NCBI GenBank assembly: GCA_913048215.1 | Contig: CAJWXC010000005.1 | Span: forward strand, 1 to 38,129 | Length of the DNA stretch: 38,129 bases | Reading direction: 5' to 3' | From: an uncultured Flavobacteriaceae bacterium | GTDB lineage: Bacteria > Bacteroidota > Bacteroidia > Flavobacteriales > Flavobacteriaceae | Shown here: positions 7,260-22,620 of the stretch, piece after piece | How the letters are laid out: every line of letters begins with the position of its first letter | Position numbering within the stretch: position 1 is the stretch's first letter | Notes under the pieces: model-generated | Databases searched by the model: none | Told to the model about the DNA's origin: nothing | The model's input: the letters and a program-made list of their open reading frames with translations, nothing else | Position numbers and translations under genes: made by a program

Positions 7260-7691
7260 CTACATACATTTAATTTTATCTACTCTTTTTTGGTGTCTAC
7301 CTCCTTCAAAATCAGTATTTAAAAAAGTTTCTACCATTTTTAAACACTGAGCAATGGAAGTAAATCTAGCGGGTATACATAAAATATTTGCATTGTTATG
7401 TTGGCGTATAAGCGATACTATTTCACTGCTCCAACACAAGCCTGCTCTAACGTTAGGATATTTATTTGCTGTCATAGCAACACCGTTTGCACTTCCGCAA
7501 ATTAGTATTCCAAAATCAACAAGGTTTCCATTAACAGCTTTAGCAACAGGGTTTGCAAAGTCTGGGTAATCAACACTATCTAAGGTGTCTGTTCCGTGAT
7601 TTTCTACTGTTATTCCTTTTGATTCTAAAAGTTTAACAATAGCAAATTTATAATCTGGTCCTGCATGATCGTTACCAATAGCTATTTTCAT
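7260..7691 (-). CDS. rpiB: Ribose 5-phosphate isomerase B (RpiB/LacAB family)
   Basis: 143 residues beginning MKIAIGNDHAGPDYK, the normal RpiB N-terminus with the phosphate/substrate-binding DHAG. GILICGSANGVAMTANK (from about 62) contains the conserved loop; the catalytic cysteine of the family is Cys in ICGSANG. His in RQHNNANIL is also conserved. It interconverts ribose 5-phosphate and ribulose 5-phosphate in the non-oxidative pentose phosphate pathway, in the cytoplasm. The ATG at 7691 is chosen because the upstream in-frame TTG at 7713-7715 lies inside a perfect -7 promoter element. The AT-rich block begins immediately upstream. Confidence 0.93.
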   Translation of the reverse strand: MKIAIGNDHAGPDYKFAIVKLLESKGITVENHGTDTLDSVDYPDFANPVAKAVNGNLVDFGILICGSANGVAMTANKYPNVRAGLCWSSEIVSLIRQHNNANILCIPARFTSIAQCLKMVETFLNTDFEGGRHQKRVDKIKCM

Positions 7692-7712
7692 AGAGTATAA
7701 TTTATATTTACA

Positions 7713-7720
7713 CAAATATA
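7713..7720 (-). promoter_or_regulatory. -7 promoter element of rpiB
   Basis: On the minus strand this reads TATATTTG, an exact match to the Bacteroidota -7 consensus TAnnTTTG. Transcription would begin near 7706, giving a leader of about 15 bases to the ATG at 7691. No TTG at the right distance upstream is visible. Confidence 0.55.
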
Positions 7721-7780
7721 GTAGTTCAAAAAATTACTGATAATATAATCTTACACAGGTTATCAACTATATATAACTTA

Positions 7781-8203
7781 GTTAATAACTCACAATTAAT
7801 TGTTAATAGGTGTTCATAGAAAAATTAAAGAAAAAGTTGTGTATTTAAATAGAATATTCAATATGTATTTATTTAAATAAAAAACAAATTATAACATACT
7901 TAGTTTTGTATGAGTTATCTAATTACAAATAGGGTTTTTAAACAGTTTTTATAAAAATAGTTATCAATAAAATACTGTTAATATTGATTTATTAAGTTTG
8001 TTAATTACTAATTTAAATTACTGTCTATCAGATAGTAAATAAATTTTAAACTGTTTATGGTATGATAATAATATTTAATAAGTTAGAGTTTATACTACTT
8101 CTATAAAAAATTATACCGCTATTAACATACTATAATAACACTCATTTTATTTTTAAAATTTATAAAAAAGAAATAAGATGTATATATACTTGTTAATAAC
8201 TCA
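7781..8203 (+). repeat. Direct repeat GTTAATAACTCA, two copies 411 bases apart
   Basis: The identical 12-mer GTTAATAACTCA occurs at 7781-7792 and 8192-8203 in the same orientation inside the AT-rich block. Its core GTTAATAA is a relaxed form of the reverse DnaA box. It could be a binding site, but low-complexity AT-rich DNA makes chance repeats likelier than usual. Confidence 0.45.
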
Positions 8204-8386
8204 GATATTTATAAAATAAAATTATTTAAAGAGGCAATTATTTCTTCTGATTGTTTGATATGATCTGGGTTACTTTTAATTTTCCAGTTATTTTTTTAAT
8301 ATAATATATACTTATATATTTCAATCATTTTACCTTTTTATTTTCTTTGATTTAATTACTAAACTATTCATTTAATATTAAAAGCG

Positions 8387-8394
8387 TAGCTTTG
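8387..8394 (+). promoter_or_regulatory. -7 promoter element of rnr
   Basis: TAGCTTTG, an exact TAnnTTTG match followed by GC, as often seen in flavobacterial promoters. No TTG is present 17-23 bases upstream, so only the -7 half is supported. Transcription would start near 8400, giving rnr a leader of roughly 150 bases. Confidence 0.5.
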
Positions 8395-8412
8395 CAGTAA
8401 TCTTAATAAATT

Positions 8413-8441
8413 GGTTTAAAACAAAGGTTTTATTTTAAACC
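8413..8441 (+). promoter_or_regulatory. Hairpin in the rnr leader
   Basis: A perfect 9-bp inverted repeat, GGTTTAAAA (8413-8421) and TTTTAAACC (8433-8441), with an 11-base loop. It would form shortly after the predicted rnr transcription start and about 105 bases before the start codon. It is not followed by a T run, so it is not a standard terminator; a role in rnr mRNA stability or control is inference. Confidence 0.4.
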
Positions 8442-8547
8442 CTCTTCACATAAATTATAGTTCATCCTGAACTCTATTTAAATCAATACCTTTAAGAAAT
8501 ATAAATTAATACGTGTCTTATAAATTATATAAGAACAAGAAAATATA

Positions 8548-10764
8548 ATGAAAAGAAAGAAAAGAAGAAATTCTTCTAATAAAATTGAAAACCTTACCCA
8601 GAGTATCCTTACTATATTAAGAAAAGACCATAGTAAACCACACAACTACAAACAATTAGCATCAAAACTAGGGGTTGATGATCCCAGTAGTAGAAATCAA
8701 ATTATAAAAAAATTAAAACTCTTACAAGTTGCAAAAACAATACAAGAGGTTGATAGAGGAAAATATATAATAACACCTTCTCAAAATTACTATACAGGCA
8801 GAGTAGATATAGCTGGGAGAGGTCAAGGATACATAATTGTTGAAGATTTAGATGAAGATATTTATGTTAAGAGTAAAAATCTTAATAAATCACTTAATGG
8901 TGATATTGTTGAAGTTTATGTATTTAAAAGAAGAAGAGGTGGAAAGACAGAAGGTGAAGTAACAAAAATTATAGAAAGAAAAAAGACAGAGTTTGTTGGT
9001 ACTATAGATATAACAGATCGTTTTGCTTTTGTTAATGTTGCAGATCATAAAATGGTTACAGATATTTTTATATCTAAAAACAATCTTAATGGAGCCAAAC
9101 AAGGAGAAATGGTTTTAGTTTCTTTAGATGACTGGCCACAAAATGCAGACTCACCCTTTGGCAGTGTATTAAAAAGATTAGGAATGCCTGGAGAGCATCA
9201 TACAGAAATACATGCAATACTTGCTCAATATGGTTTACCTTATCAATTTGATACTACTATAGAAGAATTTGCTAATAAGATAGATACCTCTATACAAGAA
9301 AGTGAAATAAAAAAACGCCGAGACATGCGTAAAGATCTCACCTTTACCATAGATCCAAAAGATGCAAAAGACTTTGATGATGCCCTTTCTTTTACAACAT
9401 TAGAAAACGGAAACCATGAAATAGGAATTCATATTGCAGATGTATCTCATTACCTTAAACCAGGAACAATTTTAGATGATGAGGCTTATTCACGCGCTAC
9501 CTCTGTATATTTAGTAGACAGAGTTGTACCAATGTTACCAGAAATTTTAAGCAACGGTGCGTGTTCATTGCGTCCTTTTGAAGAAAAATATACTTTTTCT
9601 GCAGTGTTTGAAATAAACTCAAAAGCAGAAGTTATACATCAGTGGTTTGGGAGAACAGTAACTTATAGTGATGCACGTTTTGCTTATGAGGAGGCGCAAC
9701 ATATTATAGAAACCAATCAAGATAATTCTCAACAGTTACAAACAACAATCCCTAGTGATATTTCTATCACTGATACCGCTTATGATGTAAAAAAACCAAT
9801 TGCAAAAGCTATTTTAGAGCTAGATAGGTTAGCTAAAATTATTCGTAAAAAAAGAATGAATAACGGGGCAATATCTTTTGATAAAGTAGAAGTTCGTTTC
9901 AAACTTGATGCTACCAACAATCCAGAAGGTGTTTATTTTAAAGAGAGTAAAGATGCAAATAAATTAATAGAAGAGTTTATGCTTCTTGCCAATAGAAGTG
10001 TGGCGGAGTTTATCGGAAAGCAAAACCCTAAAAAAACATTTGTATATAGAGTACACGATGAGCCAGACGACGAGAAAATAGCTGCTTTAGAAAAAGTAAT
10101 AAAACAATTTGGTTACAAACTAGATACAAGAGACAAGAAATCTACTGCTCAGTCCATGAATAGGTTACTAAAAAACGTTCATGGCACCAAAGAGAAAAAT
10201 ATGGTAGACACCTTAGCGATTCGCACTATGAGTAAAGCAGTGTATACAACTAATAATATTGGGCATTACGGCCTAGCTTTTGATTACTATACACATTTTA
10301 CTTCTCCCATTAGAAGGTACCCAGATGTAATGGTTCACAGATTATTACAACATTACTTGGATAAAAACACTACCCAAAAACAAGAAGCCTTTGAACAAAA
10401 GTGTAGTCACAGTAGTGAAAGAGAAGGTTTGGCCGCAAGAGCAGAAAGAGATAGTATAAAATACATGCAAATTAAATACATGCAGGATCATCAAGATCAA
10501 GACTTTTTAGGGGTAATTAGTGGGGTTACACAGTGGGGAATCTATGTAGAAATTGTGTCAAACAAATGTGAAGGAATGGTTCGTATACAAGATATGCGTG
10601 ATGATCATTATGAGTTTATACAAGAGCAATACGCTGTGGTTGGAAGAAAAACCCAAAACACGTACACCTTAGGTGACCAAGTCTATGTTAGGGTAAAAAA
10701 TGCAGATTTAGTGAGAAAACACCTTGATTTTACAATGTTAACTCAAAGTCCAGAACCCATATAA
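8548..10764 (+). CDS. rnr: Ribonuclease R (RNB-family 3'-5' exoribonuclease)
   Basis: 738 residues. Layout: basic N-terminus and winged-helix-like region (about 1-75), two cold-shock domains (about 80-235), the RNB catalytic domain (about 260-590) and a C-terminal S1 domain (about 645-730, DFLGVISGVTQWGIYVE). The RNB acidic site DPKDAKDFDDA (269-279) retains Asp269, Asp275, Asp277 and Asp278, which bind the catalytic magnesium ions. RNase R degrades structured RNA 3' to 5' and takes part in rRNA and mRNA quality control. The first third is more AT-rich in codon choice than the rest of the window, like the adjoining spacer. It has its own promoter; the LysE-family gene follows 50 bases later. 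Confidence 0.96.
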   Translation: MKRKKRRNSSNKIENLTQSILTILRKDHSKPHNYKQLASKLGVDDPSSRNQIIKKLKLLQVAKTIQEVDRGKYIITPSQNYYTGRVDIAGRGQGYIIVEDLDEDIYVKSKNLNKSLNGDIVEVYVFKRRRGGKTEGEVTKIIERKKTEFVGTIDITDRFAFVNVADHKMVTDIFISKNNLNGAKQGEMVLVSLDDWPQNADSPFGSVLKRLGMPGEHHTEIHAILAQYGLPYQFDTTIEEFANKIDTSIQESEIKKRRDMRKDLTFTIDPKDAKDFDDALSFTTLENGNHEIGIHIADVSHYLKPGTILDDEAYSRATSVYLVDRVVPMLPEILSNGACSLRPFEEKYTFSAVFEINSKAEVIHQWFGRTVTYSDARFAYEEAQHIIETNQDNSQQLQTTIPSDISITDTAYDVKKPIAKAILELDRLAKIIRKKRMNNGAISFDKVEVRFKLDATNNPEGVYFKESKDANKLIEEFMLLANRSVAEFIGKQNPKKTFVYRVHDEPDDEKIAALEKVIKQFGYKLDTRDKKSTAQSMNRLLKNVHGTKEKNMVDTLAIRTMSKAVYTTNNIGHYGLAFDYYTHFTSPIRRYPDVMVHRLLQHYLDKNTTQKQEAFEQKCSHSSEREGLAARAERDSIKYMQIKYMQDHQDQDFLGVISGVTQWGIYVEIVSNKCEGMVRIQDMRDDHYEFIQEQYAVVGRKTQNTYTLGDQVYVRVKNADLVRKHLDFTMLTQSPEPI

Positions 10765-20691: not shown

Positions 20692-20707
20692 TGTTCCACG
20701 TGGAACA
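20692..20707. promoter_or_regulatory. parS centromere-like site 1 (ParB binding)
   Basis: TGTTCCACGTGGAACA, a perfect 16-bp palindrome and a known form of the conserved bacterial parS sequence (B. subtilis: TGTTTCACGTGAAACA). ParB binds such sites to segregate the chromosome origin region. It lies between the mnmG promoter and start codon. A TTG one base to the left opens an apparent mnmG extension starting FHVEQ, which is simply parS translated. Confidence 0.92.
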
Positions 20708-22604: not shown

Positions 22605-22620
22605 TGTTCCACGTGGAACA
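22605..22620. promoter_or_regulatory. parS centromere-like site 2 (ParB binding)
   Basis: A second perfect TGTTCCACGTGGAACA, 6 bases after the mnmG stop codon and 28 bases before the TTG start of the methyltransferase gene. It is 1913 bases from site 1 and identical to it. No further copy was noticed in the window. Confidence 0.92.

What the first reader, a model, noticed from the sequence alone, without database searches (positions are those of the whole stretch)
7721..8547. Candidate chromosomal replication origin between rpiB and rnr
An 830-base gene-free, extremely AT-rich block with several relaxed DnaA-box-like motifs (one with a single mismatch to TTATNCACA), a duplicated 12-mer and long A/T runs. 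rnpA and mnmG, often near origins, and two parS sites lie within 15 kb. dnaA is absent and the flanking genes do not diverge, so it stays a candidate.
Basis: partly seen in the sequence, partly recalled or inferred. Interest (0 to 1): 0.6.

Follow-up and report, generated by a model that had tools for sequence, protein, structure and literature searches.

The report
Chromosome replication origin of marine flavobacterium
The AT-rich stretch between the rpiB and rnr genes is very probably the place where this marine bacterium starts copying its chromosome; the same short sequence arrangement recurs at the same place in many relatives, while the dnaA gene lies elsewhere.

Summary
The block is real and the oriC reading holds up, with corrections. 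GC is 0.18 against 0.37 in the rest of the window. TTATNCACA is not enriched; the boxes enriched at this locus in the family are TTATTAACA, CTATTAACA, TTATCAACA and canonical TTATCCACA. A core, TATTAACA-NN-CTATNATAACCANCATTTT, AT-rich spacer, inverted box (window 8120-8199), was found in 111 of 199 family genomes (reversed-pattern control 5 of 199). Of 33 hits in genomes where I knew rpiB's place, 32 lie 363-556 bp upstream of rpiB on the opposite strand. The inverted box, not part of the pattern, is present in 93 of 104 distinct cores, 91 at one spacing give or take 1 bp (shuffled control 2 of 104). GC-skew minima in relatives lie 16-39 kb from the locus, 26 of 26 parS-like sites in 14 genomes within 61 kb of rnr, dnaA 0.9-1.9 Mb away. 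Two published flavobacterial predictions point to mnmG; where mnmG is 60 kb or 285 kb off, skew and boxes favour rpiB/rnr. No DnaA-trio run was seen. Origin activity is untested. Side finding: a covarying structured leader upstream of rnr.

The parts
7260..7715 (-). rpiB (ribose 5-phosphate isomerase B); likely ATG at 7689-7691
   Evidence: Pfam PF02502 2.6e-53, NCBIfam rpiB, start codon read
7713..7720 (-). TATATTTG, a TAnnTTTG-like -7 element, perhaps the rpiB promoter (promoter motif recalled, from no call)
   Evidence: sequence; ACAAATATA is present in all six rows of the alignment
7692..8547 (.). rpiB-rnr intergenic region, proposed oriC region
   Evidence: GC 0.18; divergent flanks; conserved locus
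7760..7819 (.). left box cluster: TTATCAACT 7760-7768 (+), TTATTAACT 7780-7788 (-), CTATTAACA 7801-7809 (-), CTATGAACA 7811-7819 (-); only 7801-7809 is an exact family box, the others have one mismatch
   Evidence: AATTGTTAATAG 7798-7809 invariant in the five nearest relatives
8112..8127 (+). core left element TATACCGCTATTAACA, with box CTATTAACA at 8119-8127
   Evidence: once in this genome; exact TATACCGYTATTAACA in 25 of 199 family genomes, 22 of those 25 matches within 1.5 kb of rpiB and/or rnr; the other 3 have neither gene in 8.5-13 kb, one of them lying inside a long ORF
8129..8148 (+). conserved ACTATAATAACACTCATTTT (family consensus NCTATNATAACCANCATTTT)
8149..8190 (.). AT-rich spacer, proposed unwinding element (GC of 8128-8190 is 0.127)
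   Evidence: 8155-8174 and 8176-8194 invariant in the five nearest relatives
8191..8199 (-). inverted box TTATTAACA; TTATCCACA is the commonest form here in relatives (46 of 93)
   Evidence: fixed spacing in 91 of 104 distinct cores
8217..8280 (-). remnant of a small DUF2007-like gene; a 71-aa ORF stands at this place in relative L035
8387..8547 (+). TAGCTTTG (8387-8394), a likely rnr promoter -7 element (motif recalled), and structured 5' leader of rnr
8548..10764 (+). rnr (ribonuclease R)
   Evidence: TIGR02063 3e-216
20692..20707 (.). parS-like palindrome TGTTCCACGTGGAACA (parS identity from recalled consensus)
22605..22620 (.). parS-like palindrome TGTTCCACGTGGAACA

Best explanation
The rpiB-rnr gap (7692-8547) holds the DnaA-dependent chromosomal replication origin (oriC) of this Flavobacteriaceae species, and the functional core is 8112-8199. 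Proposed mechanism: DnaA, encoded elsewhere, loads on the left cluster (7760-7819) and on two boxes that face each other, CTATTAACA at 8119-8127 and the inverted TTATTAACA at 8191-8199. The oligomer opens the 63-bp segment between them (13% GC), helicase is loaded there, and two forks leave in the directions in which rpiB and rnr are transcribed. Shown by computation: conservation, fixed geometry, nearness of the skew minimum and of parS-like sites in relatives, distance from dnaA. Inferred: DnaA binding, unwinding, origin activity.
For: (1) Divergent rpiB/rnr recurs: 64 of 80 named loci have rnr within 10 kb upstream of rpiB, 64 of 64 on the opposite strand. (2) The a priori canonical box TTATCCACA occurs 29 times in 63 such gaps against 0.4 expected; TTATTAACA 73 against 6.2; CTATTAACA 69 against 1.6. 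(3) Core pattern in 111 of 199 family genomes against 5 of 199 for the reversed control; 32 of 33 hits in genomes with known rpiB lie 363-556 bp from rpiB, opposite strand. (4) Inverted box at fixed spacing in 91 of 104 distinct cores, control 2 of 104; 46 of the 93 inverted boxes found are TTATCCACA. (5) Skew: genome-wide samples put the minimum between 800 and 975 kb in G014 (rnr 912 kb) and between 2720 and 2880 kb in G056 (rnr 2738-2741 kb); contiguous 200-kb reads give minima at 22, 30 and 39 kb from rnr and 16 kb in same-genus G200. (6) 26 of 26 parS-like sites in 14 genomes lie within 61 kb of rnr, on its side. (7) dnaA is 0.9-1.9 Mb from rnr in 8 of 8 single-contig genomes, and 8 kb around the window genome's own dnaA hold a single family box. 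(8) In G023, where rpiB and rnr are 37 kb apart, four boxes lie within 690 bp directly upstream of rnr and the parS-like sites 6-7 kb beyond.
Against: The contiguous skew minima do not fall on the gap: in G014, G056, G034 and G200 they lie 16-39 kb off, each time on the rpiB side, and in noisy G023 22 kb off on the rnr side. The window itself shows no skew change of sign at the gap on its 38-kb scale. G204 was read on one side only and shows only a weak trend. The core pattern misses 88 of 199 family genomes and all 127 genomes of other families in the order. G023 has boxes but no core match. G014 has only 2 exact boxes in its gap, no denser than at least five other sampled places. In same-genus G206 the 1200 bp upstream of rnr hold no exact box. 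16 of 80 named loci lack rnr within reach, 4 of them because the contig ends within 700 bp.
Confidence: 0.88

Rival explanations
1. The origin lies beside mnmG (between the two parS-like sites, 12-14 kb away in the window), as two published Ori-Finder 2022 predictions for Mariniflexile and Algorimicrobium say in their text; the rpiB-rnr gap is then only a neighbour.
For: Published predictions (PMC11278836, PMC12843772; passages read; the figure legend of the first labels mnmG as ter, against its own text). parS-like sites flank mnmG here. The skew offsets of 16-39 kb do not separate the two where mnmG is 5-20 kb away.
Against: No family box within 1 kb of mnmG in the window. In G034 mnmG is 60 kb from rnr and sits well up the rising skew arm, with the minimum on the rpiB side. 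In G023 mnmG is 285 kb from rnr, while the parS-like sites and the box cluster are at rnr. In G014, G056, G034 and G200 the contiguous minimum is on the rpiB side; in G014, G056 and G034 mnmG is on the rnr side. The conserved core is beside rpiB.
Confidence: 0.05
2. The conserved core is a DnaA-bound regulatory or titration site (datA- or DARS-like, names recalled) near the true origin, which lies 16-39 kb off on the rpiB side.
For: A box cluster at fixed geometry can also be a titration site; four contiguous skew minima are offset to the same side; no trio run seen.
Against: In the 200-kb stretch of G034 the densest box cluster is the gap itself, and in G023 the one upstream of rnr; for G056 it is the gap too, for G014 it is a tie. 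The AT-rich segment between facing boxes suits an unwinding site.
Confidence: 0.05
3. The gap is only the divergent promoter region of rpiB and rnr, AT-rich because it is regulatory.
For: TAnnTTTG-like elements on both sides and a conserved rnr leader.
Against: Promoter-like elements and leader take up the edges (7692-7720 and 8367-8547). The core stays beside rpiB where rnr starts 1.9-2.1 kb away (G024, G059), and canonical DnaA boxes at fixed spacing are not promoter parts.
Confidence: 0.02

Closest known systems
Bacterial oriC with DnaA boxes and AT-rich unwinding element (E. coli / B. subtilis / Helicobacter type)
   Same: DnaA boxes flank an AT-rich segment in an intergenic gap near the skew minimum and parS-like sites of relatives; a DnaA with a usual-looking box-reading motif (GQRDHATVLHAC) is encoded in the genome (comparison with other DnaA recalled).
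   Different: Not beside dnaA; the prevailing box is TTATTAACA/CTATTAACA; two boxes face each other at a fixed distance of about 70 bp with the spacer between them; no run of DnaA-trios.
Ori-Finder predictions in Mariniflexile, Algorimicrobium and Elizabethkingia
   Same: oriC away from dnaA (Mariniflexile, Elizabethkingia) and at the skew extreme (PMC11278836, PMC12843772, PMC8994065; passages read). Elizabethkingia: a 649-bp region, three boxes with at most one mismatch to TTATCCACA, dnaA 1.9 Mb further on in coordinates.
   Different: Those papers name mnmG as neighbour or give coordinates only; the passages read do not name rpiB-rnr or a conserved core.
Basal unwinding system (BUS) of B. 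subtilis
   Same: A box next to a conserved track and an AT-rich stretch; one perfect CTA (3'-GAT-5' on the other strand) follows the left box in the family consensus.
   Different: The BUS model has co-oriented boxes and several DnaA-trios (PMC10721633, PMC8235120, passages read); here the core boxes are inverted and only one perfect trio is seen.

Membership tests
bacterial chromosomal oriC | AT-rich intergenic region | tested here: met
   GC 0.182, lowest in the window
bacterial chromosomal oriC | cluster of DnaA boxes (boxes are often species-specific: PMC10225481, passage read) | tested here: met
   3 exact family boxes against 0.21 expected (set chosen with this gap included); canonical box at the homologous place in relatives. 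Canonical TTATNCACA itself is not enriched in the window
bacterial chromosomal oriC | position at the cumulative GC-skew minimum | tested here: inconclusive
   In relatives the minimum is near, 16-39 kb off; it was not resolved to the gap, and is not testable in the window's own 151-contig draft
bacterial chromosomal oriC | parS sites nearby (usual, not universal) | tested here: met
   26 of 26 parS-like sites in 14 genomes within 61 kb of rnr
bacterial chromosomal oriC | next to dnaA (common, not defining) | tested here: not met
   0.9-1.9 Mb away in 8 of 8 single-contig relatives; on another contig in the window's draft
bacterial chromosomal oriC | DNA unwinding element | tested here: inconclusive
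   13% GC segment between the core boxes; unwinding itself not testable
bacterial chromosomal oriC | initiation of replication in vivo | not testable with these tools
   needs marker frequency or a plasmid assay
basal unwinding system (BUS) | several DnaA-trios next to co-oriented boxes | tested here: not met
   read by eye on the consensus, no script: one perfect CTA after the left box, then the middle positions break; core boxes are inverted
DnaA titration site (datA/DARS-like) | binds DnaA without initiating | not testable with these tools
   none

The most novel reading that the evidence does not exclude
Flavobacteriaceae use a family-specific origin architecture: two facing DnaA boxes held at one fixed distance around a 60-bp AT-rich segment with a conserved CTATNATAACCANCAT track, opened by a mechanism other than the BUS/DnaA-trio route, and kept beside rpiB through much of the family although dnaA lies far away.
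Probability: 0.35. Interest if true: 0.6.

Novelty: new member of a known kind. Interest (0 to 1): 0.48.

Why it matters
If right, it proposes the origin of a large, ecologically important family at the level of an ~90-bp core and gives a searchable signature. Replication rates from read depth (ori/ter ratios), strand-bias work and genome numbering in Flavobacteriaceae could use it instead of dnaA, which is 0.9-1.9 Mb off in the eight single-contig genomes looked at, or mnmG. The facing-box geometry without a trio run gives a direct test of how general the BUS model of origin opening is.

Tried and rejected
Origin beside dnaA: rejected; the first 8 kb of the window genome's dnaA contig hold one family box, and dnaA is 0.9-1.9 Mb from the locus in eight single-contig relatives. 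Origin beside mnmG: disfavoured. Strict 16-mer core TATACCGYTATTAACA as a general marker: too strict, 25 of 199 genomes, 3 of the 25 matches away from both genes; replaced by a degenerate 28-mer. In one search four genomes (G047, G107, G110, G162) have two matches; the others have one. In one search the reversed control rang in 2 of 148 genomes, one of them outside the family, where the core itself rang in 0 of 127. Rfam: only a tRNA in the window at gathering scores; three hits in 8200-8620, all far below their gathering scores. DnaA-trio run: looked for by eye, not found. Literature: ten searches of the held library; combinations of rpiB and rnr with oriC, origin of replication or Flavobacter gave 0 papers, so in that library I found no description of this locus as an origin. 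Most listed papers were seen as listing only; passages were read of six and of PMC8235120. DoriC itself was not searched and may list such origins. Blattabacterium, a reduced relative, was reported without dnaA and without DnaA boxes (PMC2768785, passages).

Rows dropped before counts: the 63 intergenic regions are those with rpiB and rnr found and a gap of 50-1300 bp after correction to the start codons; loci without rnr in reach or with longer gaps were left out, and some genomes appear twice through two collections. Of 29 family loci with only 1.5 kb of flank, 21 show rnr, 21 of 21 divergent. In one search only genomes with an rpiB position were used; I copied the 33 hits by hand. In one search, 142 loci gave 104 distinct cores; these include loci fetched by the core pattern, but the inverted box was not part of that pattern. 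In one search I used 11 of the 13 leaders (L099, nearly identical to L076, and L126, unlike the rest, were left out); the four-helix structure counted was drawn by hand from the RNAalifold result and by eye. On second check I lowered the main confidence from 0.90 to 0.88 because four contiguous skew minima are offset to the same (rpiB) side.

Full report
WHAT WAS CHECKED. The window is G000:C5:1-38129 of a 1.82-Mb draft in 151 contigs, 83% complete. Two contigs of same-genus genomes have the same lengths as named records, G200:C1 (1,143,345) as Patiriisocius marinus KCTC 32322 and G204:C4 (317,870) as a MAG titled Aequorivita sp. HC6-5, so the species is probably a relative of P. marinus in Flavobacteriaceae. 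The gap between rpiB (start codon 7689-7691, minus strand) and rnr (8548, plus) is 856 bp, GC 0.182 against 0.372 elsewhere, and is the most AT-rich place in the window. Contrary to the finding, the flanking genes diverge.

WHAT IS CONSERVED. Of 80 named loci with a close rpiB, 64 have rnr within 10 kb upstream, 64 of 64 on the opposite strand, at 175-8776 bp; four of the other 16 end within 700 bp of rpiB. In 63 gaps of 50-1300 bp (window included; some genomes twice) the strongest 9-mers include CTATTAACA (69 against 1.6 expected), TTATTAACA (73 against 6.2), TTATCCACA (29 against 0.4) and TTATCAACA (30 against 1.4). The canonical box was not chosen after the fact; the others were. With the set fixed, the 63 gaps hold 201 boxes against 9.9 in shuffles; 60 of 63 are above expectation, 54 of 63 at 0.05 or less.

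THE CORE. Aligning the gaps shows one unit: TATTAACA, two bases, CTATNATAACCANCATTTT, an AT-rich spacer, and a box on the other strand. As a 28-base pattern with up to 3 mismatches it is found in 111 of 199 family genomes, the same pattern reversed in 5 of 199. In 33 hits from 32 genomes where I had the place of rpiB, 32 lie 363-556 bp upstream of rpiB on the opposite strand; the 33rd is a second hit in G047 on another contig. The inverted box was not part of the pattern, yet 93 of 104 distinct cores carry TGTNNATAA downstream, 91 of them at one spacing give or take one base, 46 of the 93 as TGTGGATAA, that is TTATCCACA; shuffled flanks gave 2 of 104. In the window the unit is CTATTAACA 8119-8127, spacer, TGTTAATAA 8191-8199, at the commonest spacing. 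Outside the family the pattern was not found: 0 of 127 genomes of the order, against 14 of 21 family members in the same draw.

WHERE IT LIES ON THE CHROMOSOME. Genome-wide samples of 20 kb put the cumulative skew minimum between 800 and 975 kb in G014, where rnr is at 912 kb, and between 2720 and 2880 kb in G056, where rnr is at 2738-2741 kb. Contiguous 200-kb reads give minima 22 kb (G014) and 30 kb (G056) from rnr, on flat floors, 39 kb in G034 and 16 kb in same-genus G200. All four lie on the rpiB side, a consistent offset that I cannot explain. G023 is noisy: sampled minimum at 920 kb, local minimum at 1014 kb, rnr at 992 kb. G204 was read on one side only. So the resolution is tens of kilobases, and the window itself shows no sign change at the gap. 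In 14 genomes 26 of 26 parS-like sites lie within 61 kb of rnr and on its side; the window's draft has two sites, both in this contig. dnaA is 0.9-1.9 Mb from rnr in eight of eight single-contig genomes (some lengths known only rounded). In G025 the only contig begins 557 bp before the rnr match and rpiB stands near its other end, as if cut at this locus.

THE mnmG RIVAL. Two papers on Mariniflexile and Algorimicrobium report Ori-Finder 2022 predictions at or next to mnmG (PMC11278836, PMC12843772; passages read). The first notes that dnaA did not agree with the skew; its figure legend labels mnmG as ter, against its text. mnmG lies 12 kb from rnr in the window, so such genomes cannot separate the two. 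G034 can: mnmG is at +60 kb, and skew rises from rnr through that point. G023 can too: mnmG is 285 kb off, while the parS-like sites are 6-7 kb from rnr and four boxes lie within 690 bp directly upstream of it. No family box is within 1 kb of mnmG in the window.

MECHANISM. The facing boxes around a 63-bp, 13% GC segment suggest that DnaA bound at both ends opens what lies between; this is inference. The best-studied opening route, the BUS, uses co-oriented boxes and a run of DnaA-trios (PMC10721633, PMC8235120; passages read). In the family consensus the left box is followed by a single perfect CTA; the next triplets lack the conserved middle base. I therefore do not file it under BUS. The window genome encodes a 493-aa DnaA ORF with a usual-looking box-reading motif (motif recalled).

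AROUND THE CORE. In L035 a 71-aa ORF (weak DUF2007 match, 17.4 bits against a cut-off of 25.7) lies between the core and rnr, and the other four near relatives carry the homologous DNA; the window keeps only a fragment. The 160 bases before rnr form a conserved leader; with a four-helix structure drawn by hand, on 11 sequences 7 of 25 pairs change on both sides against 2.6 in shuffles (0 of 500 reach 7), six of them in the last stem. Against it, the number of further pair types (12) is reached by 93 of 500 shuffles, the third stem is only 84% paired, and the tool warns that related sequences can exceed shuffles. No Rfam family matches it at gathering score.

VERDICT. oriC, with probability about 0.88; ordinary in kind, with a conserved architecture that I did not find described in the held library (searches listed under Tried and rejected).

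Noticed in passing
window 8387-8547 (+), and L265, L266, L267, L268, L269, L271, L272, L116, L076, L065: Conserved structured 5' leader of rnr: with a hand-drawn four-helix structure 7 of 25 pairs change on both sides (0 of 500 shuffles reach it), no Rfam match at gathering score; a candidate cis-regulatory RNA of ribonuclease R. Other genera have different-looking leaders at the same place.
   Followed up: partly
window 8204-8366; ORF in L035 9272-9487: A 71-aa DUF2007-like gene between the origin core and rnr in near relative L035 is reduced to a fragment here.
   Followed up: partly
G014:C1 position 415; G025:C1 start of contig: One single-contig genome (G014) is numbered from dnaA, which is 0.9 Mb from the skew minimum; another (G025) appears to be cut at the rpiB-rnr locus.
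   Followed up: no
window 20692 and 22605: The two parS-like palindromes sit one at each end of mnmG; pairs about 1.9-2.4 kb apart occur in several of the 14 genomes.
   Followed up: no
G206 (L271): Same-genus genome with no exact family box in the 1200 bp upstream of rnr; the origin may have moved or lie nearer rpiB, which was not within reach of the locus.
   Followed up: no
G014, G056, G034, G200: The contiguous cumulative-skew minimum lies 16-39 kb on the rpiB side of the gap in each of these four genomes; cause unknown.
   Followed up: no
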